Shown: in pieces, positions 26,662 to 57,957 of the stretch | Position numbering within the stretch: position 1 is the first letter of the stretch | Layout: each line of letters starts with the position of its first letter | Position numbers and translations under genes: made by a program | From: Uloborus plumipes | Taxonomy: Eukaryota; Arthropoda; Arachnida; Araneae; Uloboridae | Assembly (NCBI GenBank): GCA_038373865.1 | Contig: JAXGGA010004730.1 | Span: forward strand, 21,088-85,087 | Direction of reading: 5' to 3' | DNA length: 64,000 nucleotides | The notes under the pieces: model-generated | What the model was told of the DNA's origin: nothing | What the model saw: the letters and a program-made list of their open reading frames with translations, nothing else | The model's database searches: none

Positions 26662-26680
26662 TACGTAGTATAAGAAGACA

Positions 26681-32051: not shown

Positions 32052-32216
32052 CAATACACCACTAACGCGGCTATTCCATCCAAGGACTGCAGTTTCGTGC
32101 TTATTGGCACTCGTCAGCCTGGAGTGCCTCCTAGCTCGGTTGATCTTATCCCAGGAAGACGAGTGTGAATAAGCACGAAACTGCAGTCCTTGGATGGAGT
32201 AATCGAGTTAGCGATG
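32052..32216. repeat. 165-bp fold-back at the outer edge of the left arm
   Basis: TCCAAGGACTGCAGTTTCGTGC and its inverted partner (GCACGAAACTGCAGTCC) enclose about 65 bp; the inverted repeat is about 50 bp long. Only one half is present at the right-arm edge (57.83-57.90 kb), so the palindrome boundary falls inside this small element. Confidence 0.7.
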
Positions 32217-32284
32217 TATTACATGATTTCTGCCGTAACCCTGGCTTAGGGTCGGTAATTTACTGCTTTTCATCAGTAAGAGTT

Positions 32285-32690
32285 CCCAAGTAGCATCAAC
32301 TCATCGGATTTTGCTCGGCCGATCAACAAACTCCTCGTAAACTGATCCTGTAACGCACGATGACATCGTTCCGATCAGTATCCGAGCACGGTTTTCGATG
32401 AGCTACTTTTCATCGGAAAGCGATATCCTTCCGATCAACTTTCCCGATGAAAATAAGATGAGCTATATTCCATCGGAAAACGATATCCTTCCGATCAAGT
32501 TTCCCGATGAAATTCCTCGGCACGGGACTGTTCTGCTCGTAAATTGCTCCAAATCTCATCGTATTCTCATCGGATTTTGCTGCTCGGATTCTGCTCGGCC
32601 GATGAGACATATTGGATCATCGGCCGATGAGAATTTCATCGGGTTTCGATGAATGGCCGATCATCGGCCGATGAGATGATGCTGCTAGGG
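32285..32690. mobile_element. 406-bp CATCGG-rich element, left arm only
   Basis: Ends CCCAAGTAGCATCAACTCAT and the inverted ATGAGATGATGCTGCTAGGG. The right arm shows the empty site (CAGTAAGAGTTAAAGGC read in the left-arm direction), so the insertion is exact with at most a TT duplication. The interior is a dense set of CATCGG/CCGATG motifs, including two ~65-bp tandem units with GATATCCTTCCGATCAA and palindromes such as TCATCGGCCGATGA. Confidence 0.8.
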
Positions 32691-33386
32691 TTAAAGGCAA
32701 ATAACTAGCACATTTTATTTATTTGTTTTATGTCATGGAAAAAAAATAATAATAAAACAATCTTTCCGTTACTCGTTTTGCTATTTCTCTTAAGGTACTT
32801 TTTTCAAAATAATACCAAAAAAAAAACCGCTTTTATATGTAAGTTATAATTCTAGAGAATAAAATTTAAGATTGAAAAAATTTATTCAAACCTCTAACAT
32901 TACTGTCCGATAAGGAAACTAAATATCATTAAATATTTTTTTTTTTAAAAAACACTTCCCTTAGTTTTACGGGGAAAAAAAACAAATATGTAAGATAGGT
33001 ACAAACATGCATTGAATAACTTGCTTTTTCAAGTTTATATACGGTACCATTTGCTTAAAATATGCCACTTTATCTTTTGGAACCTCTTTCAAGTTATTCA
33101 AATTTGCTTTTCTATTCAAAGACTGAATGGGGGGGAAAAAACTGAACCTGTAACATCAACGCTCTTTAACGCATTACGATTGGGAAAAAAATGAGCTCTT
33201 AAAAAAAAGGGTAGAACAAAAAATTTAAAATAGTTGATTGCACTTTATGAACAAAGTTCTGGGGTATGAATCAAATCTCCCACACACTTCGATGAGGAAT
33301 CTAAACCAAATATATATGAAAGAAAGGGATTAAAATGTAAAGGTATGGTTTAATTAATTAAAAGAATAAATAATAAAGTTATATAT

Positions 33387-34397
33387 ACACTGCAAAAAAA
33401 AAATAAGTTGTTGTTATTTACCTGTATAATACTGATAGCAAGAGGTTTCACAGGCATTAAAACTGCAAAATGCACAGTAATAAAATGTAAAAGTGCTACT
33501 TTCTACAGTCTTATTATTACGGTCATTCCATGGTGACTAACGTAACATTTAGAGCTGATTTTGTAACTGTTTTTACTTGTAACTTAAAGGATAAAAAATA
33601 TTTCTTTAGTTATGCTGGTGGATTTACAATGTACATGGTATTTATGTATCATTTCTGCTAAGAATTTAGAACAAAATGACTGACAGTAGATATTTTTTCA
33701 ACCAAAATAGCGTGACTAACATAACATTTTTGCAAATCTGAAAATGAATGCTCATGTTGTGAGGCAAAAATTTCTCAAAGTTAAGCAAGTGTTAAACATT
33801 GAATGATATATTTGAAAAATGTGTAAAGTTTGCTTTTAAAAACATAAAACACATTTATTAAATCTTAATTTTTTTTTGTCTTAAATGTCACTTTTACTCA
33901 AGATGGAGTGTGACTAACGTAATGTGACTAACGTAACTATCGAATAACAAGCAGTAAACACACTACAAACTATTTATTATGGCTAATCTCAGTGATAATT
34001 ACAATACTTTTTCATTTTTTTTTAAACTTCTTATGTTGTATGATTTTTATTTCTTTATTTATTTTTTGATACTTTTTTCACTTCGGTATTTTTTTTCTTC
34101 GGCTGAGGTGGACATTCCAATCCTGAACGGAACCCTTATAGTATAAAGTAGCGATATTATGCAGTTTATTACTACAAAATTTACAGTTTATTGCCGTTAA
34201 AAATTTAACTGTATTATACTGTATAAAACAACAGTATAATACTGGCAACAGAGGTTCCAGTTTAAAACTGTAAAATGCACGGTAAATTAGAAATTTTACA
34301 GTCCATTTTAACTTACTGTAAAAGCAAGCAATTTTACAGTTTTTTACTATGAAATTAGCTGTATTATACTGTAAAAAACTATCTACTTTTTACTGTT
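33387..34397. mobile_element. CACTG element with inner TAACGT-repeat segment (left arm, outer copy)
   Basis: MITE halves at both ends with about 600 bp between them, bounded by GTCATTCCATGGTGAC (about 33522) and GACATTCCAATCC (about 34110). The inner segment has GTGACTAACGTAAC at about 33532, 33712, 33907 and 33921. It is paralleled in the right arm at 56170-57133. Confidence 0.7.
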
Positions 34398-34872
34398 GTA
34401 AATAACAAGGGGGTTTCCCGAAATGCTATCATTACTTTTTTAAATCTCCCCTCACCCCTATATCTCCCTTTCTCACACTCTGCGTTGTATTACTTTGAAC
34501 GTATTGTTACGCCGACCATCTTGTCGATATAAAAGTTCATAGTGGATTAGACCAAATCTGACTGCTGCTGGGCAGGTTCAGGATTTCGAATCCCGGCTTG
34601 GTACAGGGCTATGGATGTACCATGGCTGTAGGGTGTCCAGAAAAAGCCTGGACTGATTTCAAAAATTCATAAAAGGAGAACGGTAAATGACAAAAAAAAA
34701 ATTCTTGCAGAATATTTATGTGGTTGGACAGGAATTTTTTCTCCCAAAATTCCAAGTTTTAGTTTTAAAAAAATTCAACAGATGGCGCTGCAGATAGTAA
34801 GCCCCATAGATGCGCTTCGGTGTACTTGAGAAGGACATAACTCAATCTTGCCCTCCGCACTTCGAGCCTTTT

Positions 34873-34927
34873 TAGTCGAGTCGTCAGGACATTGGAATAG
34901 CGAACGAAAGGTTCCAGGATCGAAGCC
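34873..34927 (+). promoter_or_regulatory. tRNA-like A/B boxes inside the left TIR
   Basis: A-box-like TAGTCGAGTCG (34873-34883) and B-box-like GGATCGAAGCC (34917-34927), 33 bp apart. The intervening CAGGACATTGGAATAGCGAA resembles a tRNA anticodon arm. The right TIR holds the better consensus of the same segment. Confidence 0.45.
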
Positions 34928-35235
34928 CACGATCAGCATTCATTTTGTACACCAGGTAAGTTTAAAAGTCAAAGAAGAAAAATGTCATTTCACATCACAA
35001 TTTTTCCGAATTTTTAATTATTACAATTACTTTACGATATTTTCTTACTGTCTGCGTCTACTTGCAATCGCATCTCAGTTAACAGACTGTTTTAAAAAAT
35101 TTATGAGAGAAAATCGCTTACAGTAAAAAAAAAAAAACAGAAACCACCATATGTAAATCATTAAAATGCGCATCGGCAGATGTAGTTGAAATTTCCAGCA
35201 TTGAAACCAGCAGGATCGGAAGTATAGAGTAGAAA

Positions 35236-36318
35236 ATGGCGTATTCCTTGGATCAAAGAATTTTTCTTGTATTGGAGTACCACCGATTGGGGGAAAGCAT
35301 TACAGCAACAAGAAGAAGCTTTCAGAGCAAATTTCAGGTTAAGAATGCTCCGCATCCAAATACAATAAGAAAATTGTACGAGAAGTTTAAACGAACCGGT
35401 AGTGTTGTTGATGAGAAAATAGGAAATGTTGGACGACATCGCTCAGCTACCACTGAAGCAAATGCAAACGTCATTCAGAAAGCTATTGACCGCTCGCCTA
35501 GAAAATCAGTTAGAAAAACTGCAGCCGCATGTCGATTGAACAAAACATCTGTGCACACCATAATGCGAAAGTCTCTGGCTATGTTCCCGTACAAAATTCA
35601 AACACAGCAACCGCTTCAAGCTGCATCCATAGAGAAAAGGTTCAATTTTGCAAATGAAATTCTGCAACTGGTTGATAGTGGTAGTGTTGACGTTGATTCA
35701 ATATGGTTTTCAGACGAAGCACACTTTCATCTTGACGGATTCGTTAACAAACAAAACTGGCGTATTTGGGGAACGGAAAATCCACACGTGTGTATTCCAC
35801 AATCTTTATATCCTCAAAAAGTGACTGTATGGGCGGCTGTTTCCAGCAAAGGTGTGATTGGACCCTTTTTCATTCGCGATACAGTGACTTCAAGACGGTA
35901 CATTGAATTATTGCACGAGTTTGTGGCTGTTGAAAATGCTTTGATTCCACATGGGACATCTTGGTTTATGCAGGATGGTGCAAGACCGCATCGGACACCT
36001 GACGTTTTCAAATTTTTAGAGGAGTACTTTCATGATCGTGTGATAGCTTTGGACTATCCATACTATACAGGGAAGGGAATTGAATGGCCACCGTATTCAC
36101 CAGACTTAAACCCTTGTGATTTCTTCCTTTGGGGACATTTGAAAGATGCCGCATATCGGAAAAATCCTCGAACATTGGATGAACTTAAAAAAATAATAAG
36201 TGACGAAAGTGCAGCCATTTCATTAGCAACATTACAGAAAATGTCTGCAAATTTTGTCCTCCGGTTGCGACATGTGGTTGCAGCAGACGGTAAACATTTT
36301 GAAAATATTGTTTTGTAA
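35236..36318 (+). CDS. Mariner-type transposase, intact, DD47D
   Basis: A 360-aa DDE/D transposase that would bind the TIRs and cut and paste the element at TA. Residues 1-55 form an N-terminal HTH of the arthropod DUF4817 type (SLDQRIFLVLEYHRLGES, PNTIRKLYEKFKRTGSV). Residues 88-120 form a second HTH (SVRKTAAACRLNKTSVHTIM). The catalytic core has Asp160 (WFSDEAHFHLDG), Asp247 (FMQDGARPHRT) and Asp295 (YSPDLNPCDFFLWG). There are 47 residues between the second and third Asp because of an insertion, LDYPYYTGKGIEW, longer than the 34-41 of well-known mariner groups. ATG at 35236 is 115 bp inside the left TIR and the TAA sits 84 bp before the right TIR. No stops or frameshifts; length fits the family. 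It is the only intact gene in the window. Neighbours are repeats, so any promoter is likely within the TIR. Confidence 0.95.
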   Translation: MAYSLDQRIFLVLEYHRLGESITATRRSFQSKFQVKNAPHPNTIRKLYEKFKRTGSVVDEKIGNVGRHRSATTEANANVIQKAIDRSPRKSVRKTAAACRLNKTSVHTIMRKSLAMFPYKIQTQQPLQAASIEKRFNFANEILQLVDSGSVDVDSIWFSDEAHFHLDGFVNKQNWRIWGTENPHVCIPQSLYPQKVTVWAAVSSKGVIGPFFIRDTVTSRRYIELLHEFVAVENALIPHGTSWFMQDGARPHRTPDVFKFLEEYFHDRVIALDYPYYTGKGIEWPPYSPDLNPCDFFLWGHLKDAAYRKNPRTLDELKKIISDESAAISLATLQKMSANFVLRLRHVVAADGKHFENIVL

Positions 36319-36595
36319 TTTTGTTCAATAACTGACATCACTAAGTGCTTTTTTGTTTTATTATTATTATTATTTTACATTTTATTATTATTTTTTTAAC
36401 CATGAGCGATTTCTTCTCATGAATCTTTGAAAACCGTTTGTTGACTGAGATGTGATTGCAGCTAGTGGCAGACCGTGAGAAAATATTGTAAAATAACTGT
36501 AAGCATTAAAAATTCTGAAAAATTGTGATGTGAAATGCCATTTTTCATCTTTGACTTCTGAACTTACCTAGTGTACAAAATGAATGCTGGTCGTG

Positions 36596-36654
36596 GGGTT
36601 CGATCCTGGAATCTTTGGTTTACTAGCTAGTCCAGTGCCCCGACCGCTCAACTA
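36596..36654 (-). promoter_or_regulatory. tRNA-like A/B boxes inside the right TIR
   Basis: On the minus strand: A box TAGTTGAGCGG (complement of 36644-36654) and B box GGATCGAACCC (complement of 36596-36606), a near-perfect type 2 pol III pair. Between them, TCGGGGCACTGGACTAGCTA looks like a tRNA D-stem/anticodon region. A tRNA or SINE head appears to have been captured in the TIR. Confidence 0.55.
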
Positions 36655-37419
36655 AAACGGCTCGAAGGGCAGTGTGCTAGATTGAATTATCTGCTTTGAA
36701 AGTACACCGCGTATCTATGGGGCTTACTATACGCAGCGCCATCTATTGAAATTTTTTTAAACTAAAACTTGGAATTCCGGGAAAAAAAAAATTCCTGGCC
36801 AATCGCATGAATATTCTGCAAGAATTTTTTTTTATCGTTTACCGTTCTCCTGTTATGAATTTTTGAAAACAGTCAGTCTTTTTCTGGACACCCTGTACCT
36901 TCTCTCTCTCTCTATTGTCTTTGTCCTTTCTTAGGGTGAATACGTTGTTGTGACTGGTATGCAATGTGTGTGGGATCTAAATTCAAACTTCCACCTTTAT
37001 GATGCTCTGTAATAAAATGGACCGTAATGGTTCTGTCCCTTTAATTGGGGGACTAGCGTATGTTCTACTCGGTACTAGAAATAACCGTGCCTGATATAAG
37101 GTACCGATTCACGAAACGAAGAGTTGTACGAAGAAACGCTTTCATTTTGACATCAATTTTCTCTTTTTCCTCTCACAAACCGTCAAAATATTCTCTCGAA
37201 CCGTCCTCTCTCCTTACAAAGCGTGACCATTCAGAGCAGAACTCGTTCTAGTTGACTTAAATTGAGTTTGAAGCATGTTACATACATATTATGCACCTAT
37301 TGGGAGTAGAAATTTGCACACGATGGAGGAAGTCAATAACTGAGCCTTGGTGTTAAAAATGCCCTGGTCATCTTAATTGCACCTGCCAAAAGACTGTTGT
37401 TTTTCACACATTTAATTAA

Positions 37420-38189
37420 TTGGCAGCAGAGGTTCCAGTTTTTTAAAAACTGTTAAAATGACAACCATTAATAGGCTGAGACTAGCAAATTTTACAGATT
37501 GAGGGTCAATTCATCAAAGACTAAACATAACATTCAGAGCTGATTTAGTAACTGTTTTTACTTGTAACTTAACGGATAAAAAATATTTTTTAGTTATGCT
37601 GGGTGGATTTACAATTGTACATGGTATCTATGTATCATTTCTGCTAAAAAATTTAATACAAAATTACTGACAAGTAATATTTTTTCAACCAAAATAGCAG
37701 CGTGACTAACGTAACCTTTTTTGCAACCCTGAAAATGAATGCTCATTGTTGTGAGGCAAAAATTTCTCAAAGTTAGGCAAGTGTTTAAAAATTGAATGAT
37801 ATATTTGAAAAAATATGTAAAGTTGGCTTTTAAAAACATAAAAAACACATTTATTAAATCTGAATTTTTTTAGTCTTAAGTGTCACTTTCACTCAAGAAT
37901 GGAGTGTGACTAACGTAACGTAACCATCGAATAACAAGCAGTAAACACACTACAAACTATTTATTATGGCTAATCTCAGTGATAATTACAATATTTCTCC
38001 ATTTTTTTAAACTTTTTATGTTGTATGATTTTTATTTATTTATTTATTTATTGATACTTTTTTTTCACTTCGGTATTTTTTTTTTCTTCGGCTGAGATTG
38101 ACATTTCTAAGGAGTGACCCTTTAGTACTGTAAAATTACTACAAAATTAGCTGTATTGTAGTGTAGAAACAACATCTCATTTTGCAGTG
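37420..38189. mobile_element. CACTG element with inner TAACGT-repeat segment (left arm, inner copy, left end truncated)
   Basis: Enters within the MITE at GGCAGCAGAGGTTCCAG and ends TTTTGCAGTG. The inner part, bounded by GAGGGTCAATTCATC and GGAGTGACCC, is about 90% like the inner part of 33387-34397 and carries GTGACTAACGTAAC at about 37701 and 37906. Confidence 0.7.
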
Positions 38190-40712
38190 TTTATCAATGC
38201 ATCGCTACCAGCGAAAGAACACGCATCGACATGACATTTTTTTTCTGCAGGTTCAATATGTCCTAACCGAGATGTCGGTATATTGCTTGTAGTTCTGCCT
38301 TTGCTCTGTCTTAATGGTGGTAATTTACTAAAGAATTTTAAGATAATGGTATTTGAAAAATGTTTTTGATTTGTTACATCTGAGTATGTATACATCCGAG
38401 AGTTACACACAAAAATTTTAAATTTCAGTGTTGTTCATTCGTGTATTTTGTTACTTAGTTTAATAAAATATAAATTTTTTTGACCACTCAGTTTTTAGAG
38501 AATTATATTTCAACAAAATGCAAAACATTTCATTCTGAGATTAAAAATAAATGGCCTCATTAACATGAAATCAGCAAATCTTGAAACATAAATATAAAAA
38601 AATAATAATTACTATTTTTAATCGACTATTCCATCCACGTGTAAGTGAAATTATTATAGTTGGTATTCATTTGATAAAAAACGTTTTCCAATTAACTAAC
38701 AGAAATATGAATTTCTCCAAATTATGGATCATTTGAATGTTGAATACTTTCTGAGAATAGAAAAAAGTTATTGATTTACTCTGAGCAAAACCACCGAAAA
38801 AAAAATTAATGAATTTATTTAGAATTTTGAATTTCATATATATTCATGTATTTGTTTTATTTTTATGTTTTAACAGTAAAATAAAAGTAATTACGAAACT
38901 TAAGATCTTCTTTGTTTGCATTTCAACCACTGCAAAATTTTTATTCCTTAATTAAAAAGTTACTGATCTTTGTTTTTAACACACGGGAATGATTTATTTA
39001 CCAAATTAAAAAATATTATCTTATACGAGTTGTAATTCGGCATCAGTAAATGTATTTTTAATAAAACTTTATTGAGCACTCAAAAATCTTTAAAAACTGA
39101 AAATCGCAGCTATAAACTAAAAACCGAAAAATTGCACAAAAATGCAAAATCAGATTAATTGAAGTAATCTTTATAAAATGACAAGCACTTATAATTGGTA
39201 AATTTATCGTTTTGTATTCCCAATATCTTGTTTTTATTTAATTATGAGAAGTGAATAAAATTGACTAGCATACAAAAAAAAAAAAAAAAAAAAAAAAAAA
39301 CGACGAAGATAAAAATGAGAAACTCAAATTGCTTCTGAGAGCTTTGTTTGTTTCACAAAATGAAGATAGACGTTGAAATGTTGGAGGAAATTATTCAGTA
39401 AAAAAATGCACTCCGTTAATGTGGTTTAACGCTTTGTGTTCTGGAAAATAAAAGCAGCGGCTGACATTTTTTCTCGGATTTGTTTCGTGGTGAAATTTTA
39501 ACGTCAGAATTGTTTGGTCACTTGCCATTCACAATGATGGGCCTTTCAACTTTAGCTATGACGTCAAGTTTTTTTTTTTTTTTTGCCTTTCAGAAAAAAA
39601 CACATACACCAACTTTCTTTTTTTTTTTAACTCAAAAATCTTTGGACTGATATTGAAACTCGAGTGCACTAAGTATAGGTTATATCCTGAGTGCACTAAG
39701 TATAGGGCCCTGAAAAGTAAAAAATGCCACCTCCCCCCCCCCCCCCCCATATAATGTTTTGCATGAATAAAAAAAGTTATTTTGAGATTCCTTTTAACTG
39801 TTTTTAATGAGCCATCAAAGGCAAATAAGCTACTTTAAAGCACAGAAATGTTACTTTCCAATTTACTTCGAATGGGGGGGGGGGTGAAACATCTTTTTAA
39901 CATTTCAAGCCCATTAACTACTAAACCTTACATAATTTCCCCTCTCGTTTTTACTTAGAAATACTGTAAGGGAATAAAAACTATTTTCAAATAAAAGAAG
40001 GCTTGCAACTGACATTCCGATCGTCTGCAAGTTATTTTTTGCTTTTTCTTGCTTTGAATAAAATTAATTGAACTGAACTGAAATAAATAACGCGATAAAA
40101 ATAATAACAAAATTGATGGAACAATTCGACACGCCCAACACGAAGCGGAAAATAGGTAAGATTTTAACTTCTTAAAATTATTTTGAAAGATCCGCTAACA
40201 CAGAAGAATTAATGAACGAATCGTCATATAATATTACTCTTAAACAAGAGACTCGTGACTTTTGTGTACTTTTTCACACTGACCGCCTATTGCAATATTA
40301 GTCCCATAGTACACCAAAGTACTTTTATTCCAATATGCCTTGTATGTGTGTTTCTTTTTAAGAACACAGTTTTAAAATTTTGTGTGTGTGTGTGTGTGTG
40401 TGTGCGAACAAATAGAGAGAGGGGGGGGGGAGAGAGCGAACATATCGTCTACACCATGTTAAACTTACGAATGTGAAAATTGGCACTTTTCATGAGAGCC
40501 AAAATACTGAATATAATTTTCCCCACCTGATGTGTTTAGTTATTTTCAATTTTATAGATATCTTTAAGTGTAAAACCATCGTTCGAAGGTATCATTTTAA
40601 TTTTAATTATTTGTAAAATTCGAACCTGAAAAACGAACTTGAAAAACGCGATTTTTTACATTCGTTATCTTAGCAGGGTGCCGACGATATTAATAGACAA
40701 TACGTATAAATA
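38190..40712. other. Left-arm sequence without genes
   Basis: AT-rich. Holds an A run (39273-39300), a C run (39733-39747), a G run near 39874-39884, and the GT tract with an adjacent GAGAGGGGGG stretch (40380-40437). It is matched, inverted, at 49.44-50.19 plus 52.97-54.73 kb. No credible ORF. Confidence 0.5.
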
Positions 40713-41086
40713 CACTTAAAAATTCAGGAAGCTTTTATGGCAAATGTTACTGTAAAATGTAGCGTTTACAGTACAGAAAATTTTTACAGTAAATTGTACC
40801 GATAAAAAAATTGCGATTGCAGCGCCAATTGATCACCACGTGACTTACTGTGAGATGCAGATGACACCCTATTTCCGCTCTCCTGATGTGCCTCATCTGG
40901 TACCGTGGATAGTAAAGCAGTGTGAAAAAATTGGGTCCTGAGTTCGATCCTCTTCGTTCGTATCTCGTTCTTTTTAATTCTCGTTTCCTCTTCCGTAAAA
41001 TTTTAGTGAAAAAATATTTTACGGTAAAAGTTACTGGCAACATGGATGCCAGTAACTTTTACCGTAAAATTTCAGGAAAATTTATG
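40713..41086. mobile_element. MITE, CACTGTTAAAAATT family (left arm)
   Basis: Relative of 11456-11832 with the same GTTACTGGCAACATGGATGC hairpin and the conserved CACGTGACTTACTG block. Paired with 49064-49439. Confidence 0.75.
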
Positions 41087-41713
41087 GATGCCTTATCACG
41101 TACGTTTGTACACTAAGGTGAAAATCCCTACGTGTTTGAGTCTTAAAAATAATTTCTTCTCTTCCTACTTATTTTGAGCAACCACGAACCCCCCCCCCCC
41201 TTTTATTTAACAATTCAACTGTAAAAAAACACAAAATAGCGGAGATCGGAATGCAGGAAAAAACAGGCGCAGGAAAAGCGGAAACCGTTCATTTAAAACC
41301 CATTTCACCGCAAATAACATGTCACCGATCCCCCCACTTTATCCTTGCTTAGTAGTGTCCTTGTTAGAAAAAGACCCGAGGGTCTGAAAATTGTAAAGAT
41401 GAAGGATTTTATACTGGTTTTTTTTTCTTCTTTTTTTTTTTTTTTTTTTTCTTAAGAGTCGGAGTTTTCGAAGCCCAAAAGATCGCTTTTATGGCTTTTT
41501 CAAGATAAGGATTGTTTTTGCTCTTTTATTGTGTTTGAATGTAATACAAATTTCTTTCTGCGGTATACTTCATTGCAATACATTTCCAATTTAGTTATGC
41601 TTTTATGCCACTTAAAATGTGCATAGAAAAATTTAATTTTCCTTTTATTGCATTTAGAATTGAATCTTCTGTCAATGAACGATCGAAAAACTACGCATTT
41701 AGTTATAGAGTCT

Positions 41714-42578: not shown

Positions 42579-42689
42579 AGAGTCTTTCTTCAACACTTTC
42601 AAGAACTGAAAAAAGATCAACACTTTTGTTTTTAGAAAATACGGGTGATGTTGAAAGTTTTACGTTAATTACTACTATGTTTGCGTCCC

Positions 42690-42920: not shown

Positions 42921-42945
42921 ACAAACTTAAAAATTTTAATACTAC

Positions 42946-44545: not shown

Positions 44546-44629
44546 GATATGTTGTTTAAAATTAAGGCCTTTGAGGGGAAGTGACCCGCTCGTATCCTTC
44601 ACCAAAGTACTTGTTCGATAGCATATATA

Positions 44630-45210: not shown

Positions 45211-45250
45211 TGGAATTTAGGGTAAAGGCTCCTGAATGAAAGTGCTCCTA

Positions 45251-45661: not shown

Positions 45662-48600
45662 TAACCGTGACGAATATACACAGGAAGTTTTCTTCTGGCA
45701 ACAACTTTCACAAACAAAAATCAGCGATGATAAAAAGAAGTGATGATGAAGTAATAATAAAAGAAAATAAATAAAATAAATCATGATTTCCTTTTCAGAT
45801 AAGAAGCAAAAATGAATAGAAATATTTCGTAGAAAAATGAAGCATTTGGAAGATAGTGATGAACCAGGAAATGGAATTTCTATTCATTGATAAATGAGGC
45901 AAAGAAATGAACTATGCAAAGGGGGAAAAGGCAGAAAGGTAAAGGACAAAAAAGAAAATGAAATTTATGATCTTTATGTTTGACCAATGGCATTTAGTTT
46001 CATGTGCTGAGTTTAAGTGATAGATTTTTTAAAAATAATGAAAGTTTTTTCGACTTGGAATTTAGGGTAAAGGGTATGGAAGTTGCTGTTAGAAAGTGGT
46101 TGAAGATTTCTATTGGCATAAAATTAAAAATCCATAGGTGTTGCACAATTGTATGCAAATATCAAAAAAGAGAAAAGAAAGAATAAATATTTTTCCTTAT
46201 TTATTAGCGGCCCATTACTTTGCAGTAATCTTCAAGACTTTTTTTCAGTGCTGTTTAGGCCAAAGAAGGACATTAAGGAAGAAGTAGCCTGTGTTTACGT
46301 TTGCACAAAAATGTTATTTTTTTGTATTGTATATGCAAACTGTAATTGTTGCTTGTCTGAAACTTTTTTGTCCTATACTTTTTCCAAAACGACAATATTT
46401 TGTGAATTGATCTCTTTTATCGCTATGTAAATCAAAAAATCTTCGTGATCAACTAAAACTGAGACATATTTTAGACTTAAAAGTCATAAGTTAGTCAGAA
46501 ACAAGTCACAAATCTAAGACAGCCGAATAGTTGTTTTCTTTTGTAACCAGTTGTTTTGAAGCAAAAATAGTTTTTAATACCCTTTTATTAGTTTCACATG
46601 TGGGTTTGTTGTTTGTCAGTATGTATGTAACCAACGTCTCCTAAATAGTAAATGCCTAGAAGATTTGCTTCGCTACCGTCGAGATGGGTTCCACTTTAAA
46701 CACCATCTTACAGCAATCCGATAAGGCCGTTGTTATTTTTTGATTGGATAATTTTTAAATTTAAATTCAGAAATGAACCAATCGTTAATTTCTCGAAGAA
46801 CTCCGGTAGATGGCAGTGTATCGTGAACCAAGGGCATTTTGCAGCTATTGGCGATGGATCCAAACAATATTCGAATTAATTTTTTTGAATGGTTGAGTTT
46901 TAAATTTAAATTTAGAAATAAACCAATCGTTAATTTCTCTTTCTCGACGAACTCTGGTAGATGGCAGTGTATCGTGAATCAAGAATGAAATTTTGCTCTG
47001 TGCTAAAAACCAGAAAGTTGCAGGCATTTAGTATTTAGGAGGCGTTGATGTAACTCTGAATAAAAACTAAAATTCACGTTCTTTGCAAATGTAAAAGTAA
47101 TATATTTAATATTATTATTAATACTGAAGGCTAAACTGTATTACATGCTGATGTATTATAAGCGTTTCAGCTGTTTGTATGTAAATCTGAATAAAAGATA
47201 AAATTTACGTCCATTACAAATATAGAAAAAATATATTTAATCTACTATTAATACTGAAGGCTAAACTATATTAAATGTTGATGTATTATAAGAGCATCTA
47301 AAAGCGTATTTTTTAGTTTTTTAAAACTAATTTAAAGATTATTTTCCTCAGTTTAGATGCAGCAAGAAAAAATGCTGGTGTTTTCTTTTTGTATTCAATC
47401 ACTATTGATTTATGTTGAAAAACTATTTTCAAAAATTATTTCGTTTCAACTTGATAAATAAATTAACAACTAGACAGTTTCTAAATACTTAGCTTGAACG
47501 TTTTATCGAAAATAATTTTTAAATTAGGATGTGCGCAATTAACAGAGGACAGTTCGAATTAAAAGAAGGAAAAAAAGCCTGTTCGATTACATAACTCTTC
47601 GTTAATTACAATTTTTAAAAGCTGTATTTTTTCTGTTTTTCAATCTCTTAAACATCGCTTTCCCTTGAGCCAAATATTTAAGTGTTTATTTACTGTTGCG
47701 ACATTAACATTTTTTGATTCGAGGATTTTTTTTAAGTCTTGGGACACTTGATGAATTAAAAACATTAAAATCTCATTTAAAAAGCACAAATGTCAATAGA
47801 AAAATAGCAAAGGATAACTAGCAAGAAAAATTAACCCGTGCTTCAGGGTTAGAGGGAGCTAATTTTTGAATGCAAAAATACGCTTCGGGAAAAAAAGACA
47901 TCAAACAAAAGCCTTTTTTTTCCATCTTTTGTCAGAAAAAAATCCAAAATATCGGCAAGATCCAATATTTTGTCGCTTATGTCTTTAAATGCACGAACTA
48001 TTGTTTTTGCATTGAAAAAAGAGCTCCTCGTAATTGCAGAGGTTAAACAGGGGTTAAAACAGAATTTACAGACAGCCCGGTTATGCCATCCAGAGTGTGT
48101 GCTTATAAACCTTCCGACAAAATCTTTCGTCGGATGAAATTCGCCTTCAAAAATCTCGAAAAACGTATTAAAGGTTTTTAATTAATATCTTCGTTAATTA
48201 ATATGATCCGAAGACGCGATCTACCTAGAAACTCTCGCACTCAACTCTTTTCAAAAAAAAAAGATTTATCCGTTTAGGCGCTAGAATTCCACAGATAGAT
48301 ACACAGATACACAAATCGACAGCTACACAGAAACATTAAACTTATAACCCCCTTTCCTTGTTGCGTCGGGGCGCAAACATAGTAGTAATTAAAGTAAAAC
48401 TTTCAACATCACCCGTATTTTCTAAAAACAAAAGTGTTGATCTTTTTTCAGTTCTGGAAAGTGTTGAAGAAAGACTCTATAACTAAATGCGTAGTTTTTC
48501 GATCGTTCATTGACAGAAGATTCAATTCTAAATGCAATAAAAGGAAAATTATATTTTTCTATGCACATTTAAGTGGCATAAAAGCATAACTAAATTGGAA

Positions 48601-49063
48601 ATGTATTGCAATGAAGTATATCGCAGAAAGAAATTTGTATTACATTCAAACAGAATAAAAGAGCAAAAACAATCCTTATCTTGAAAAAGCCATAAAAGCG
48701 ATCTTTTGGACTTCGAAAACTCCGACTCTTAAGGGAAAAAAAAACTTCATCTTTACAATTTTCAGACCCTCGGGTCTTTTTCTAACAAGGACACTACTAA
48801 GCAAGGATAAAGTGGGGGATCGGTGACATGTTATTTGCGGTGAAATGGGTTTTAAATGAACGGTTTCCGCTTTTCCTGTGCCTGTCCTTTCCTGCATTCC
48901 GATCTCCGCTATTTTGTGTTTTTTACAGTTGAATTATTGAATAAAGGGGGGGGGGGGGTTTCGTGGTTGCTCAAAATCAGTAGGAAGAGAAGAAATTATT
49001 TTTAAGACTCAAACACGTAGGGATTTTCACCTTAGTATACAAACATACGTGATAAGGCAGCCA

Positions 49064-49439
49064 TAAATTTTCCTGACATTTTACGGTAAAAGTTACTGGC
49101 ATCCATGTTGCCAGTAACTTTTACCGTAAAATATTTTTTCACTGTAAAATTTTACGGAAGAGGATACGAGAATTAAAAAGCGCGAGATACGAACGACAAG
49201 GATCGAACCCGGGACGCAATTTTTTCATACTGCTTTACTATGCACGGTACCAGATCAGACACATCAGGAGAGCGGAAATAGGGTGTCATCTGCATCTCAC
49301 AGTGTCACGTGGTGATCAATTGGCGCTGCAATCGCAATTTTTTTTTTATCGGTACAATTTACTGTAAAAATTTTCTGTACTGTAAACGCTACATTTTACA
49401 GTAACATTTACCATAAAAGCTTCCTGAATTTTAACAGTG
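49064..49439. mobile_element. MITE, CACTGTTAAAAATT family (right arm)
   Basis: Inverted counterpart of 40713-41086; ends TTTTAACAGTG at 49435-49439 followed by TA. Confidence 0.75.
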
Positions 49440-49739
49440 TATTTATACGTATTGTCTATTATTATCGTCGGCACCCTGCTAAGATAACGAATGTAAAAAA
49501 TCGCGTTTTTCAAGTTCGTTTTTCAAGTTCGAATTTTATAAATAATTAAAATTAAAATGATACCTTCGAACGATGGTTTTACACTTAAAGATATCTATAA
49601 AATTAAAAATAACTAAACACGTCAGGTGGGGAAAATTATATTCAGTATTTTGGCTCTCATGAAAAGTGCCAATTTTCACATTCGTAAGTTTAACATGGTA
49701 TAGACGATATGTTCGCTCTCTCTCTCTCTCTATTTGTTT

Positions 49740-49792
<53 letters not shown>
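49740..49792. repeat. (CA)n microsatellite, right arm
   Basis: About 52 bp of CA next to a CT run (49716-49728). The left-arm counterpart at 40380 is about 24 bp, so the tract changed length after duplication. Confidence 0.95.
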
Positions 49793-49796
<4 letters not shown>

Positions 49797-50865
49797 TTTA
49801 AAACTATGTTCTTAAAAAGAAACACACATACAAGGCATATTGGAATAAAAGTACTTTGGTGTACTATGGGACTAATACTGCAATAGGCGGTCAGTGTGAA
49901 AAAGTACACAAAAGTCACGAGTCTCTTGTTTAAGAGTAACATTATATGACGATTTGTTCATTAATTCTTCTGTGTTAGCGGATCTTTCAAAATAATTTTA
50001 AGAAGTTAAAATCTTACCTATTTTCCGCTTCATGTTGGGCATGTCTAATCGTTTCATCAATTTTGTTATTATTTTTATCGCGTTATTCATTTCAGTTCAG
50101 TTCAATTAATTTTATTCAAAGCAAGAAAAAGCAAAAAATAACTTGCAAACGATCGGAATGTCAGTTGCAAGCTTTCTTTTATTTGATAAAAATATTTTTG
50201 AAAAAAAATTGAACCGACTTCGGAACTTCACTCAGAAAATGCTCTAAAAAGTAAAAAATAATTTTATTCTTTGAACACCATCGATACTACATTTAAACAT
50301 AAGTTTTGAAGTCGGCGCAAAAACTATAGGTAAAATGTTTACTATATTTTGCCAACATTTTCAGAGAAATCATTTAAAATTGAGAGCTGAATATTTGTAT
50401 ATGTATTTTTCAATGAATGCGAATAAAGAACCTGGATTCATTTAAATTTATATTTATAGTTTCGAATGATTCTATTTGGCTTTTTTTGCGCCGACTTCAA
50501 AACTTAGGTTTAACTGTAGTATCGATGGAGTTCAAAGAATAAAATTATTTTTTACTTTTTAGAGCATTTTCTGAGTGAAGTTCCGAAGTCGGTTCAATTT
50601 TTTTTCAAAAATATTTTTTACCTATAGTTTTTGCGCCGACTTCAAAACTTATGTTTAAATGTAGTATCGATGGTGTTCAAAGAATAAAATTATTTTTTAC
50701 TTTTTAGAGCATTTTCTGAGTGAAGTTCCGAAGTCGGTTCAATTTTTTTTCAAAAATATTTTTATTTTAATCTTTTTAGTGTAAATGTACATATGAAATA
50801 AAGTAACGTTTCCATTGCAAAACTTCACCTAATTTTCTTAAGTAAATGCTTCATAAAATAAACTA

Positions 50866-52155
50866 CCGTAAAATGGGGTTAATCGGAACACTTTTCAGCT
50901 TTGATTGTAAAAAAAGCAGTTAAAAGATTTTTTTAAATTTGATTTTTTGGGTAAAAACTTCGGTCTTGCTTTACTTTTGATATTCCAAGCAAAGACAAAA
51001 GATTTTGAGCAATTATTATTAAAATATATAGCAAATTATGGGTGTTCCGAATCACCCCGCTGATAGGGGTCAATCGGAACACTTGTTAAAATTTTTATTT
51101 TTTTTCAATTTAATCTGTAATAGGTCTCACAAACATGAGTAATATTGATGGGGGAGAATAAGAACAGATAATTACTGTCAAATAAATGTATAATTTCAGT
51201 ACCAGTAAACGTTTATAATTTGTAAAAATTCAAAATAATTTTGAACTTATGAAAAATGAAAAGTAATTTTAAAAAAAGCTTTTGAATTGAAATGCAAAGA
51301 TTTAACATGAATGGAAGTCACTCATGTCGTCCACAAATATGTACTTGTCCTTAAAACTAGCAATTGTGACTTGGCTTAAGTTTTTTCATAACATCTCCTG
51401 GGATGAACTCTGCCTTTTCTTTAGTTTTTTGAAATTTCTGGGTTTCGGGGATTGTCCTGAAAGATTTTTTCGCTTATTCATCACTGTCTGTGTGATGGAC
51501 GTTTACTACATAAAGTCTATGTGACTTTCTCCCTTTTATTTTAAGTAAAAAAAAGTCTCCTGGAGAAAAAATCTTTTGAAATCTAACTTTTGTCTTTCTA
51601 AGATCTAGTTGCTCACGAGAAGGGATAAACAGTAATAAATCCTTGTCCCTGTCTTGATTAGAAGAATTGGGGTTAGAATCTTGATTTTTCAAACAATTTC
51701 CTTCAAATAAGTTTGAATTGGAACAAAAGAACTAAGTGTTCCGATTCACCCCGCAAATTTATTTCCCATGGCATTTTTCAGAATTCTTCACTTTTATGAC
51801 ACAATTTATAAAAAAATGTAAATTTTAATGTGGTATTCCGTTGTTCAGATACATGTATAATTGAAACATACCACTCATAGTGTTTAAATATAAGAAGGTT
51901 TGTTCTTGCATATGAAGTTTTGCAGTCTATGAAAATGTGATGTTTTCTAGCATTCCACGTGAAGCCCTCTTTAGAAGCCAGTAGCGTTGCCAGATTGACA
52001 AAAGTATTTTTTTCCTACTTCCTATGATCTTACCTTTCTAAGAAAAAAATTCATGGCGAAAAATACCCAATAGTATATTTATGAAGAATTTCTTTGTACG
52101 GTTGGGAAGTTTTGTTCCGATTGACCCCGCTGTTCCTATACACCCCATTTTACGG
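50866..52155 (-). mobile_element. 1.29-kb TA-inserted element with CCGTAAAATGGGGT ends
   Basis: Ends CCGTAAAATGGGGTTAATCG and the inverted CCCCATTTTACGG inside TA (50864-50865, 52156-52157). GTTCCGATT(C/G)ACCCCGC motifs recur internally near 51050, 51740 and 52120. Its only protein-like stretch is the remnant on the minus strand. Confidence 0.8.
51370..51692 (-). pseudogene. Possible pogo-like transposase C-terminal remnant
   Basis: The minus frame gives KIFSPGDFFLLKIKGRKSHR then LYVVNVHHTDSDE and a TAA. The same frame then continues FRTIPETQKF, KEKAEFIPGDVMKKLKPSHN. The order GDF-LLK--G, YVV-V, D-DE, then a short charged tail ending KL-P fits the C-terminal tail of many pogo/Tigger-type proteins in arthropods, as I recall them. 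The DDE core is missing. TA target and TIR agree with that superfamily, but the assignment rests on a short motif. Confidence 0.35.
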
Positions 52156-52349
52156 TATGTAAGAAAAAAAAAGAAAGTATCAACGCGTCTAAAATTTTAA
52201 ACGATTGACACTAAAAAATAATCCTTGTTATTCTCTGGTATTTATTTGTGTACTAGTTTAATTAAAGGCTAAATATTAACGGCTTTACAACTAATTTATG
52301 TTTCAAAACAACACTAGATTCTCGCAGTTCATAAAATTTCACGACGTAT

Positions 52350-52680
52350 TACATAGGTGGCCCGCTAATTAGTTTTATGTTTGATTCAGTTAAGCCTTCA
52401 TTCACAATTTTCATGATCATTATAATAACTGTTTCATATTAATCACGTTCTGTAACAATGGATTTCATATTTAATCATTTAGGACAAATCGCTTTAAATT
52501 TGAGCAAAAATTTGGAGATTTTCCTCATTTTCTTCAGAATTCCTTTATCAAACCTTATGTAAATTAAGACTAACAAAACCTGAAATATTACGAATCAATC
52601 AGTACCTGGTACGACTTTCAGTTCGTTGGAGTTCAGGAGAAAAAAGCAGGACATAGAAAGATACTCGGTTTAAAATTTTC
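52350..52680 (-). mobile_element. Inverted Helitron fragment
   Basis: Reading on the minus strand: GATACTCGGTTT order reversed, GTCGTACCAGGTACTGATTG, AAATTTAAAGCGATTTG, AGTTAAGCCTTC, GCGGGCCACC. These are the blocks of the Helitron derivatives at 21.8 and 61.2 kb. Both termini are missing. Confidence 0.6.
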
Positions 52681-53199
52681 AAAAAGACCATAGAAAGGAG
52701 TTTCATTATGCAATCCAGAGAAGCCTGGCGTTCAAAATGATCATTATTACGATTACTGTGATCCCAATTTCTTTTTCGAAAGATTTCTGCAGGTTCCCGT
52801 TATCGAACCCGGACCACGAGAGGATGGGACCAGTCGGAAAGAAAGACCTTTCTAACAAAAAAAGAATTTTTGAAATCGGTCCAGGCGTCTTCGAGTAATC
52901 TTGGAACATACCGAAAAAAAAAAATTTCTCCGACGAATTGTATAACCTCCTCCTTTGTTGAAGTCGGTTAAAAATAGTTATTATTCCCTTACAGTATTTC
53001 TAAGTAAAAACGATAGGGGAAAATATGTAAGGTTTAGTAGTTAATGGGCTTGAAATGTCAAAAAGATGTTTCACCCCCCCCCCCCCCCCATTCGAAGTAA
53101 ATTGGAAAGTAACATTTCTGTGCTTTAAAGTTGATTATTTGCCTTTGATGGCTCATTAAAAACAGTTAAAAGGAATCTCAAAATAACTTTTTTTATTCA

Positions 53200-54733
53200 T
53201 GCAAAACATTATATGGGGGGGGGGGCATTTTTTACTTTTCAGGGCCCTATACTTAGTGCACTCAGGATATAACCTATACTTAGTGCACTAGAGTTTCAAT
53301 CTCAGTCCAAAGATTTTTGAGTTAAAAAAAAAGAAAGTTGGTGTATGTGTTTTTTTCTGAAAGGCAAAAAAAAAAAAAAAAACTTGACGTCATAGCTAAA
53401 GTTGAAAGGCCCATCATTGTGAATGGCAAGTGACCAAACAATTCTGACGTTAAAATTTCACTACGAAACAAATCCGAGAAAAAATGTCAGCCGCTGCTTT
53501 TATTTTCCAAAACACAAAGCGTTAAACCACATTAACGGAGTGCATTTCTTTACTGAATAATTTCCTCCAACATTTCAACGTCTATCTTCATTTTGTGAAA
53601 CAAACAAAGCTCTCAGAAGCAATTTGAGTTTCTCATTTTTATCTTCGTCGTTTTTTTTTTTTGTATGCTAGTCAATTTTATTCACTTCTCATAATTAAAT
53701 AAAAACAAGATATTGGGAATACAAAACGATAAATTTACCAATTATAAGTGCTTGTCATTTTATAAAGATTACTTCAATTAATCTGATTTTGTATTTTTTG
53801 TGCAATTTTTCGGTTTTTAGTTATAGCTGCGATTTTCAGTTTTTAAGATTTTGAGTGCTCAATAAAGTTTATTAAAAATACAATTACTGATGCCGAATTA
53901 CAACTCGTATAAGATAATATTTTTTAATTTGGTAAATAAATCATTCCCATGTTAAAAACAAAGATCAGTAACTTTTTTAATTAAGGAATAAAAATTTTGC
54001 AGTTGGTTGAAATGCAAACAAAGAAGATCTTAAGTTTCGTAATTACTTTTATTTTACTGTTAAAACATAAAAATAAAACAAATACATGAATATATATGAA
54101 ATTCAACATTCTAAATACATTAATTTTTTTTCGGTGGTTTTGCTCAGAGTAAATCAATAAACTTTTTTCTATTCTCAGAAAGTATTCAACATTCAAATAA
54201 TCCATAATTTGGAGAAATTCATATTTCTGTTAGTTAATTGGAAAACGTTTTTTATCAGATTAATACCAACTATAATATTTCACTTACACGTGGATGGAAT
54301 AGTCGATTAAAAATAGTAATTATTATTTTTTTATATTTATGTTTCAAGATTTGCTGATTTCATGTTTAATGAGGCCATTATTTTTAATCTCAGAATGAAA
54401 TGTTTTGCATTTTGTTGAAATATAATTCTCTAAAACTGAGTGGTCAAAAAAATTTATATTTTATTAAACTAAGTAACAAAATACACGAATGAACAACACT
54501 GAAATTTAAAATTTTTGTGTGTACTCTCGGATGTTACATACTCGGATGTAACAAATCAAAAACAATTTTCAAATACCATTACTTAAAATCTTTAGTAAAT
54601 TAAAACCATTAAGACAGAGCAAAGGCAGAACTACAAGCAATATACCGACATCTCGGTTAGGACATATTGAACCTGCAGAAAAAAAATGTCATGTCGATGC
54701 GTGTTCTTTCGCTGGTAGCGATGCATTGAAAAA
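53200..54733. other. Right-arm sequence without genes
   Basis: Inverted match to 38.19-39.74 kb. Contains poly-G (53215-53225), poly-A (53368-53382) and poly-T (53650-53661) runs. No credible ORF. Confidence 0.5.
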
Positions 54734-55522
54734 CACTGCAAAATGAGATGTTGTTTCTACACTACAATACAGCTAATTTTGTAGTAATTTTACAGTACTA
54801 AAGGGTCACTCCTTAGAAATGTCAATCTCAGCCGAAGAAAAAAAAATACCGAAGTGAAAAAAAAGTATCAATAAATAAATAAATAAATAAAAATCATACA
54901 ACATAAAAAGTTTAAAAAAATGGAGAAATATTGTAATTATCACTGAGATTAGCCATAATAAATAGTTTGTAATGTGTTTACTACTTGTTATTCGATGGTT
55001 ACGTTAGTCACGTTACGTTAGTCACACTCTATCTTGAGTAAAAGTGACATTTAAGACTAAAAAAAATAAGATTTAATAATTTTTTTTTTGTTTTTAAAAG
55101 CCAACTTTACATATTTTTCAAATATATCATTCAATTTTTAACAATTGCCTAACTTTGAGAATTTTTTGCCTCACAACATGAGCATTCATTTTCAGGGTTG
55201 CAAAAAGGTTACGTTAGTCATGCTGCTATTTTGATTGAAAAAATATCTACTGTCAGTAATTTTGCATTAAATTTTTAGCAGAAATGATACATAGATACCA
55301 TGTACATTGTAAATCCACCAGCATAACTAAAAAATATTTTTTATCCTTTAAGTTACAAGTAAAAACATTTACTAATCAGCTCTGAATGTTACGTTAGTCT
55401 TTATGAATGACCCTCAACTGTAAAATTTGCTAGTCTCAGCCTATTAATGTGCATTGTACAGTTTTAAACTGGAACCTCTGCTGCCATTATTATAGTGTAA
55501 AAACAACAGTTTTTTTGCAGTG
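54734..55522. mobile_element. CACTG element with inner TAACGT-repeat segment (right arm, inner copy)
   Basis: CACTGCAAAATGAGATGTTG to TTTTTTTGCAGTG, 789 bp, so here the end missing from the left arm copy is kept. Inner bounds GGGTCACTCC (about 54804) and GAATGACCC (about 55423). GTTACGTTAGTCAC occurs twice in tandem near 55000-55027 and singly near 55207 and 55390. Confidence 0.75.
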
Positions 55523-56169
55523 AAATCAATGACAGGACATTTTACCTAAGGCTCAGTTATTGACTTATCCATCGTTGCAAATTTCTACTCCCAATAGGTC
55601 ATAATATGTATGTACAGCTTCAACGATTTAAGTCAACTAGAAGGAGTTCTGCTCTGATGTCACGCTTTGAAGGAGAGAGGACGGTTCGAGAATATTTGAC
55701 GGTTTGTGAGAAGGAAAAAGAAAATTGATGTCAAAATGAAAGCGTTCTTCGTAAAAATATTTGATGTTGATCGTACTTAACCCGCGCGGTTATTCTAGCC
55801 CGAGTAGATAACGATATCCCATTAAAGGCAGAACCAGTACGTCCATTTTTTACTGAGCATGATAAAGGTGGAAGTTTGATTTAGATCCCACGCACATTGC
55901 ATACCAGTCACAACAACGTATTCATCCTAAGAAAGGACAAAGACGAGAGAGAGAGAAGGTACATCCATGCCCTCGACCAAACCGGGATTCGAATCCTGAA
56001 CCTACCCATCAGCAGTCAGATTTGTCTAACCACTATGAACTTTTATATCGACAAGATGGTCGGCATAACAATACGTTCAAGTAATATAACGCAGAGTGTG
56101 AGAAGAGGAGATTAGGGGTGAGGGGAGATTAAAAAGTATGATATCATTTCGGGAAACCCTTTTATATAC

Positions 56170-57133
56170 ACAGTAAAAATAGATGTTTTTACAGTATAAT
56201 ACAGCTAATTTCATAGTAATAAACTGTAAAATTGCTGCTTTATACAGTAATAAACTGTAAAATTGCTAATTTACCTTGCATTTTACAGTTTTAAACTGGA
56301 ACCTCTGTTGCAGTATTATACTGTTGTTTTTACAGTATAATACAGTTAAATTTTACGGAAATAAACTGTAAATTTGTAGTAATAAACTGCAAAATTGCTG
56401 CTTTACTATAGGGTCGTTCCAATGGAATGTCAACCTCAGCCGAAGAAAAAAAAATACCAAAGTGAAAAAAAGTATCAAAAAATAAATAAATAAAAATCAT
56501 ACAACATTAGAAGTTAAAAAAAATGGAAAACGTATTGTAATTGTCACTGAGATAAGCCATAATAAATAGTTTGTAGTGTGTTTTTTGCTTGTTATTCGAT
56601 GGTTACGTTAATCACACGCCATCTTGATTAAAAGTGAGACTTAAGACTAAAAAAAAAAAAAAAAATAAGATTGAATAAATGTGTTTTATGTTTTTAAAAG
56701 CCAATTTTACACATTTTTCAAATATATCATTCAATTTTTAACACTTGCTTAACTATGAGAAATTTTTGCCTCACAACATGAGCATAAATGTTCAGGGTTG
56801 CAAAAATGTTACGTTAGTCACGTCGCTATTTCTGTTGAAAAAATATCTACTGTCAGTAATTCTGTTTTAAATTCTTAGCAGAAATGATACATAGATACCA
56901 TGCACATTGTAAATCCACCATCAGAACTAAAATATATTTTTTATCCTTTAAGTTACAAGTAAAAATAGTTACAAAATCAGCTCTGAATGTTATGTTAGTC
57001 ACTATGGAATGACTGTATAATAGACTGTAAAATTAGCACTTTTACAGTTTATTACTGTGCATTTTGCAGTTTTAAGCTTGAATCTCTGCTACCAGTATAA
57101 TACTGTAAAAACAACAACTTATTTTTTGCAGTG
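56170..57133. mobile_element. CACTG element with inner TAACGT-repeat segment (right arm, outer copy)
   Basis: Counterpart of 33387-34397. Inner bounds GGGTCGTTCCAATGGAATG (about 56410) and CTATGGAATGACTG (about 57002); GTTACGTTAATCAC near 56602, GTTACGTTAGTCAC near 56808. Ends TTTTTTGCAGTG followed by TA. Confidence 0.75.
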
Positions 57134-57957
57134 TATATATATACTTTAATTATAACCATCCCTTTACATTTATCCTTTTCTTTCATATATATTTGTTTGA
57201 TTCCTCATCGAAGTGTGTGAGATTATTCATACCCAAACTTTGTTCATATGCAATCACTATTTTATTTTTTGTTCTACCTTTTTTAGAGCTCATTTTTTTT
57301 CTATCGTAATGCTAAAAGAGCGAGATTACAGTTCATTTTTTTCACATCATTTTTTAAAAAAAAAAAAAATTTGAATAACTTGAAAGAGGTTCTAAAAGAT
57401 AAAGTGGCATGTTTTAAGCAAATGGCACCGTATATAAACTTGAAAGTTATTCAATACATGTTTGTACCTATCTTACATATTTGTTTGTTTCCTTGTAAAA
57501 CTATAGGACGTGTTTAAAAAAAATATATTTAATGATATTCAGTTTTCTTATCGGACAGTATGCGTTAGAGGTTTGAATAAATTTTTCCAATCTTAAATTT
57601 TATTCTCAAGAATTATAACCTACAGATGAAAGCGGTTTTCTTTGGTATTGTTTTGAAAAAATACTTTAAGAGAAATAGCAACACGAGTGACGGAGAGAAT
57701 GCTTTATTATTATTTTTTTTCCATGACATAAAACAAATAAATAAAATGTGCTAGTTATTTGCCTTTAACTCTTACTGATGAAAAGCAGTAAATTACCGAC
57801 CCTAAGCCAGGGTTACGGCAGAAAACATGTAATACACCGCTAACTCGATTACTCCACCCAAGGACTGCAGTTTCGTGCTTATTCACACTCTTCTTCCTGA
57901 GATAAGATTAACCGAGCTAGGAGGCACTAAAGGCTGACGAGTGCCTCCTGTGCTGAC

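What the first reader, a model, noticed from the sequence alone, without database searches (positions are those of the whole stretch)
32052..57945. A ~26-kb palindrome: two ~9-kb arms around a 2-kb spacer
Landmarks run in exactly mirrored order over the whole interval, from the CAAGGACTGCAGTTTCG edge to the AACCAACGTCTCC edge at the spacer. Sampled arm identity is about 95% by eye. Such a structure can form hairpins and cruciforms, drive gene conversion or amplification, and makes long double-stranded RNA if transcribed across (a small-RNA source). The arms share no gene, so the duplication itself is the feature. It is unlikely to be a simple fold-back sequencing artefact because each arm has private insertions and substitutions.
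Basis: seen in the sequence. Interest (0 to 1): 0.85.

Follow-up and report, generated by a model that had tools for sequence, protein, structure and literature searches.

The report
Large inverted duplication in arachnid-like DNA
A stretch of DNA with no recognised gene, in what looks like an arachnid genome, has been copied next to itself in reverse, forming a 26-kb mirror image that most likely arose from a copying slip and then aged; it is real in the assembly, known in kind, and not yet proven with single DNA reads.

Summary
The palindrome is there: six collinear inverted blocks (8,484 aligned bases, 96.6% identical) link 32106-44533 to 46617-57945 around a 2,083-base spacer. Its left edge is ~32105, not 32052. 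Arms are 12.4 and 11.3 kb; about 9 kb is shared. A 779-base arm stretch was found twice in the 1.42-Gb assembly, once per arm; most of the tested half of the spacer was found once, which speaks against a transposon. Two edges are intact and two broken: dispersed element P runs unbroken across the right inner edge but is cut on the left; dispersed element E runs unbroken across the left outer edge but is cut on the right. That fits one inverted duplication with two template switches, whose inserted unit is spacer plus right arm (44534 to ~57949). Clean stretches differ by 2.8%, unevenly (1.3-6.8%). Four insertions, each empty in the other arm, show separate histories. The main rival, two haplotypes joined head to head, is weakened but not excluded; no reads were available. 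Part of the left arm carries raw-read-like errors. New member of a known kind; no gene or function found.

The parts
32106..44533 (+). left arm (with private insertions)
   Evidence: six inverted collinear blocks to the right arm
46617..57945 (-). right arm (inverted copy)
   Evidence: stretch 47358-48136 was found in the assembly only in the two arms
44534..46616 (.). spacer between the arms; in 45664-46616 only the right end (from about 46531) has close matches elsewhere; 44628-45663 holds dispersed 30-base repeats
44533..44534 (.). junction 1: element P cut on the left (inferred breakpoint)
57940..57950 (.). junction 2: element E cut, then 3-4 bases that extend a 6-bp inverted repeat of E to 10 bp, then the interior of element X (inferred breakpoint)
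46568..47344 (+). dispersed element P, unbroken across the right inner edge, with the ~430-base dispersed element T (about 46631-47047) inside it
32045..32270 (+). dispersed, internally palindromic element E, unbroken across the left outer edge
34622..36893 (+). private insertion in left arm: Tc1/mariner-like transposon, 361-aa open frame at 35233-36315, ~506-base terminal inverted repeats
41717..42578 (+). private insertion in left arm, inverted ends GTCGT.../...ACGAC, target duplication AGACTCT
32285..32686 (+). private insertion in left arm, terminal inverted repeats, clean empty site on the right
42916..43014 (+). 99 bases present on the left, replaced by about 8 on the right; the left form is continuous with a repeat also at 19493-19591, so the right probably lost them
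50200..52967 (+). private insertion in right arm; its first ~600 bases are related to the dispersed element at 58093-59972
32800..37800 (+). left-arm tract (outside the transposon and about 33600-34000) with many small extra bases relative to the right arm, read as sequencing errors

Best explanation
A local inverted segmental duplication of DNA without recognised genes. Inferred mechanism: while the ancestral locus (left flank - E - arm - P - spacer in reverse - ... - X - right flank) was being copied or repaired, the new strand switched at base 44533, inside P, to the opposite strand about 2 kb further on, copied back through spacer, P, arm and half of E, snapped back briefly on a short inverted repeat of E, and switched again into X. 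The inserted unit is 44534 to ~57949. Since then each arm has gained its own transposons and point changes, perhaps with patchy gene conversion. Shown: the arms, the copy number of the stretches queried, two intact and two cut edges, private insertions. Inferred: template switching as the cause, a single event, and that the order is true in the living chromosome.
For: Arm stretch 47358-48136: two matches in the assembly, one per arm; the other 38 of 40 rows match only the first 45-58 bases of the query. Spacer 45664-46530: no match above 77% elsewhere among 40 scored candidates of 145. Right inner edge unbroken: C17221 matches 46571-47344 in one piece; in the 8 loci fetched the element continues past it (7 of 8 in BLAST, the eighth by eye; the 8 were chosen from 18 rows that reach the query end), while the left copy keeps only the last ~15 bases before T. 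Left outer edge unbroken: 18 contigs have an E copy running from query base 64-117 to 296-315, across the edge at base 150/151; the right E stops at 57945. Junction 2 extends GGCACT/AGTGCC of E to AGGAGGCACT/AGTGCCTCCT. Empty sites for four private insertions. No N in the window.
Against: No read data, so the contig order is unproven. The ancestral unduplicated locus was not seen. The 3-4 snap-back bases have a chance of about 1 in 64 to 1 in 256 (own arithmetic). E copies that span the edge are only 73-83% alike, and about 16 other contigs hold a half-E that starts at query base 170 or later, though the right arm's E reaches base 151 and so is not that form. In one search, 11 of the 29 short rows at the spacer's right end stop 5-7 bases short of the edge. 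The left arm contains error-rich tracts, a sign of thin support there. Two cut edges could also come from two separate events.
Confidence: 0.58

Rival explanations
1. Assembly artefact: two haplotypes of one locus were joined head to head, so the arms are alleles and not duplicates.
For: Exactly two copies of the arm stretch queried; divergence of 1.3-2.7% over most clean tracts and private transposons are possible between haplotypes of an outbred arthropod (general knowledge); the left arm has raw-read-like errors.
Against: A single misjoin predicts inverted homology between the flanks beyond both outer edges. Between the ~6 kb on the right and the 53 kb of contig on the left, BLAST gave only repeats up to 90% alike, the longest in direct orientation. 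A second break inside E is then needed. The spacer stretch 45664-46530 and 63 bases of the left flank, 31956-32018, gave no close second match, so there is no sign that this assembly keeps both haplotypes here; few stretches were tested, and a longer haplotype test was not run. The outermost clean bins differ by 6.8%, high for alleles, but they lie partly in repeat X.
Confidence: 0.27
2. Two-step origin: a broken end folded back on itself and was copied (spacer = single-copy loop), making a longer palindrome; a later deletion or rearrangement removed the outer part on the right and joined E to X.
For: A ~2-kb spacer with only one broken inner edge is what the fold-back model predicts (PMC3907307, passages: spacers 766-70,466 bp, median 3,428 bp, in 21 sequenced junctions).
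Against: It needs a second event at the right outer edge; no trace of a longer palindrome was found in the right flank within the contig.
Confidence: 0.11
3. A giant fold-back transposon or other mobile element with ~11-kb inverted ends.
For: The window and contig hold several smaller inverted-repeat stretches.
Against: The arm and spacer stretches tested gave no further copies; the edges lie inside other repeats; no duplicated target site at the outer edges was seen by eye.
Confidence: 0.02
4. Fold-back or whole-genome-amplification chimera made from one DNA molecule.
For: Amplification often makes artificial palindromes (PMC6218980, search listing and start of abstract only).
Against: Arms from one molecule would be identical apart from read errors; here 177 of 6,285 clean bases differ and four insertions have empty sites.
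Confidence: 0.02

Closest known systems
Non-recurrent inverted duplications with a single-copy spacer (human, fold-back model; PMC3907307, part of the abstract and passages seen)
   Same: inverted copies around a spacer of a few kb; one inner edge is the break
   Different: here ~11-12 kb and inside a contig, no terminal deletion known; the outer edge is a second junction
Inverted duplications by replication template switching (FoSTeS/MMBIR) and ODIRA (PMC10766186, part of the abstract and passages seen)
   Same: inverted junctions; a short inverted repeat at one junction
   Different: ODIRA starts from an inverted triplication; two copies only were found here, and no de novo event was observed
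Palindromes of the springtail Folsomia candida (11 of 15 within-scaffold collinear blocks; PMC5490193, passages seen) and of the rotifer Adineta vaga (17, as cited there)
   Same: invertebrate inverted duplications with divergent arms
   Different: those carry collinear genes; no gene recognised here
X-chromosome palindromes of primates (PMC8981503, start of abstract in a listing)
   Same: large inverted repeats (the presence of a spacer there is recalled)
   Different: those keep arm identity above 99% by gene conversion; here 97.2% in clean tracts

Membership tests
inverted segmental duplication | non-dispersed DNA present in two inverted copies | tested here: met
   (one 779-base stretch counted genome-wide; 40 of 42 first-look candidates scored)
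inverted segmental duplication | physically contiguous in the chromosome | not testable with these tools
   no reads or depth data
template-switch or fold-back inverted duplication | one broken and one intact inner edge around a spacer found once | tested here: met
   only 45664-46616 of the spacer was tested for copy number apart from its repeats
template-switch or fold-back inverted duplication | microhomology at junction 1 against the ancestral sequence | not testable with these tools
   no unduplicated relative was available
ODIRA | inverted triplication | tested here: not met
   two copies only of the stretch queried; secondary products of ODIRA are not excluded
gene-conversion palindrome (sex-chromosome type) | arm identity above 99% | tested here: not met
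   177 of 6,285 clean bases differ
fold-back transposon | further copies in the genome | tested here: not met
   for the stretches queried
haplotype misjoin | homologous inverted flanks beyond both outer edges | tested here: not met
   the right flank is only ~6 kb long
haplotype misjoin | summed arm read depth equal to flank depth | not testable with these tools
   no reads

The most novel reading that the evidence does not exclude
The palindrome was born in one replication accident with two template jumps, and is a standing natural long-hairpin locus: read-through transcripts would fold into kilobases of double-stranded RNA rich in transposon fragments (E, P, T, X, 30-base repeats) and feed small RNAs against those families, while arm-to-arm conversion keeps some stretches alike.
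Probability: 0.05. Interest if true: 0.6.

Novelty: new member of a known kind. Interest (0 to 1): 0.3.

Why it matters
If real, it is a well-marked inverted duplication in a likely arachnid, in which dispersed repeats at the edges tell which two of the four edges are breaks; that lets single-event template switching be tested against fold-back plus later loss. If not, it is a useful example of how haplotypes and raw reads can build a false palindrome. Either way it carries no recognised gene of the host.

Tried and rejected
Giant transposon: rejected by copy number of the stretches queried. One-molecule fold-back artefact: rejected by divergence and empty sites. First idea that the right arm lacks bases through deletion errors: reversed after aligning X copies, where by eye R1, R2 and L2 mostly agree against extra single bases in L1; an automatic count on another alignment put 27 gap columns on L1 against 3 on R1 (24 ambiguous), but 30 on L2 against 19 on R2 (23 ambiguous), and that alignment was poor. 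First idea that the inner edge coincides with the end of element T: replaced when the host element P was seen to continue across it. Genes: of 16 frames, only the transposase and a reverse transcriptase reached a Pfam cut-off (sub-threshold hits only otherwise); no homologue of the 110-aa frame at 47849-48178. RNA families at gathering score and tRNAs: none. Species: named transposase relatives are spiders and two mites; the reverse transcriptase did not help. Arm stretch 53400-54795 did not complete; a longer haplotype test on the left flank was never run. L033, L035 and L036 (contig C14246): L033 showed only repeats shared with the inner arm, L035 and L036 were fetched and not analysed.

Full report
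What is there. Self-comparison of the window shows six inverted blocks in mirrored order between 32106-44533 and 46617-57945. Realigned block by block, 8,194 of 8,484 aligned bases agree, with 149 transitions, 141 transversions and 167 gaps. The spacer is 44534-46616. The strongest inverted match in three shuffled versions of the window (letters shuffled within 200-base blocks) scored 33.7-41.9 bits, so chance is out of the question.

Where it is. The window is bases 21088-85087 of an 85,087-base contig of a 1.42-Gb, 25,906-contig assembly.

Sequence quality. Small insertions (up to 4 bases) in the left arm cluster: 12 of 49 bins of 200 bases hold 114 of them and the other 37 hold 29 (bins were sorted by that very count, so only the clustering is informative); 11 of the 12 lie at 32800-37800, the twelfth at 39000. 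In an alignment of the four X copies, extra single bases in L1 are mostly absent from R1, R2 and L2 together (by eye). An automatic count on another, poorer alignment agreed for L1 (27 gap columns against 3 on R1, 24 ambiguous) and only weakly for L2 (30 against 19 on R2, 23 ambiguous). These look like errors of unpolished long reads; for the tracts outside X this rests on the one-sided bias alone. In the 37 clean bins, 177 of 6,285 bases differ (2.8%).

Uneven divergence. Bins give 95 of 3,521 (2.7%) at 40000-44533, 26 of 1,948 (1.3%) at 37800-39799 and 46 of 676 (6.8%) at the outer end; Fisher p = 0.001 for the first pair, smaller for the others. I left out 11 of the 12 error-rich bins (the one at 39000 was kept) and the three bins at 34600, 36800 and 39800; the outer set lies partly in element X. 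The groups were chosen after seeing the bins. Patchy gene conversion would do this, and so would mixed ancestry of alleles or conversion among X copies.

Private insertions. On the left: a Tc1/mariner-like transposon (34622-36893; DUF4817 and DDE_3 domains; open 361-aa frame), an 862-base element with target duplication AGACTCT (41717-42578) and a 402-base element (32285-32686). On the right: 2,768 bases at 50200-52967, whose first part is related to the element at 58093-59972. The other arm shows the empty site in each case. A fifth difference, 42916-43014, is probably a loss on the right. A same-molecule artefact is thus very unlikely.

Copy number. The arm stretch 47358-48136 was found twice in the assembly, once in each arm; the remaining 38 of 40 rows match only the first 45-58 bases of the query (40 of 42 candidates scored). 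For spacer 45664-46616 the only full match is its own place; of the other 41 rows, 29 are a short repeat at its right end and 12 are matches of 69-77% within 46304-46546 (40 of 145 candidates scored). The rest of the spacer holds a dispersed element, about 45249-45663, with 39 other places among 40 scored. In one search, 31956-32018 of the left flank was matched only at its own place among 102 rows. Much of the flanking DNA queried is dispersed repeats: 30162-31954, 58093-59972 and 60216-61218.

Which edges are breaks. Inner edges: a dispersed element P begins at about 46568 and runs over the right inner edge (46616/46617) into the arm, where element T (about 46631-47047; most listed copies 92-96% alike) sits inside it. 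This is seen in C17221 in one piece, 46571-47344 at 84%. In one search, 18 of the 29 short rows run to the last query base, 46616, and 11 stop 5-7 bases before it. I fetched 8 of the 18: in all 8 the element goes on past the edge (7 by BLAST, the eighth by eye), and in 7 of 8 it is followed, by eye, by the sequence that in the right arm follows T. On the left, P is cut so that only about 15 bases before T remain. So 44533/44534 is a break and the right inner edge is not. Outer edges: in 18 contigs an E copy (73-83% alike) runs from query base 64-117 to 296-315, hence across the left outer edge (base 150/151) unbroken; about 16 further contigs hold only a half-E from base 170 or 203 on. On the right E stops at 57945, base 151, which is not the start of the half form, and the interior of X begins at about 57949. 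So the right outer edge is a break and the left is not. At that junction, E's own 6-bp inverted repeat GGCACT/AGTGCC is lengthened to AGGAGGCACT/AGTGCCTCCT (57919-57928 with 57940-57949): three to four bases not in the left E that read as copied from the opposite side of the hairpin. The last of them may belong to X.

Mechanism. One broken and one intact edge on each arm is what a copy made with two template switches leaves: rightward through E, arm and P to 44533; switch to the opposite strand beyond the spacer; back through spacer, P, arm and E; then a brief snap-back and a switch to X. The pattern of edges is shown; the mechanism is inferred. A fold-back break with a later loss at the right outer edge explains the same edges in two steps (fold-back model, PMC3907307, passages). 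ODIRA (PMC10766186, passages) starts from an inverted triplication, and no third copy was found, though that paper derives other inverted variants from it by secondary rearrangement.

Real or artefact. The chief doubt is a head-to-head join of two haplotypes. Against it: no inverted homology of the outer flanks was found, two false joins would be needed, one of them inside E with seemingly templated bases, and the two stretches outside the arms that were tested gave no close second copy. For it: two copies exactly, moderate divergence, raw-read-like tracts. Without reads I keep it at 0.27.

Standing. Invertebrate palindromes with diverged arms are known (11 in Folsomia candida, PMC5490193, passages), and primate X-chromosome palindromes exceed 99% identity (PMC8981503, start of abstract). 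This one lacks recognised host genes and is less alike than the latter. It is a new member of a known kind. My five paper searches were too few to say what is in print on palindromes of arachnids.

Noticed in passing
35233-36315: Open 361-aa Tc1/mariner-like transposase frame (DUF4817 + DDE_3), 76% identical to an unnamed database protein, inside a 2.27-kb element with long (~506-base, 83.6% alike) terminal inverted repeats; possibly recently active.
   Followed up: partly
173-843; 14815-16193; 7308-9910; 22527-22978: Further near-palindromes of 0.45-2.6 kb (67-95% alike) in the same window; perhaps fold-back elements, copy number not tested.
   Followed up: no
32045-32270: Dispersed element E is itself an imperfect inverted repeat; one search shows full copies and a half form that starts at about 32125.
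   Followed up: partly
62598-63137 and contig C4730:1690-2673: The same 72-base tandem repeat near both ends of the contig; at the left end a stretch with inverted arms (C4730:2663-5544, 91.5%) splits sequence that is continuous at 62418-63729.
   Followed up: partly
32800-37800: Left-arm tract with raw long-read-like small insertions on both sides of a transposon whose frame is open; suggests gap filling or failed polishing.
   Followed up: partly
2532-2855; 24275-24431; 26399-26663; 34173-34377; 44628-45663; 56167-56406: Recurrent 30-base palindromic unit ACTGTAAAATTAGCAATTTTACAGTTTATT in clusters through the window; the spacer's copy (about 45249-45663) has relatives on 39 other contigs among the 40 places scored.
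   Followed up: partly
20075-20638: Piece of a LINE-type reverse transcriptase (RVT_1) on the minus strand.
   Followed up: no
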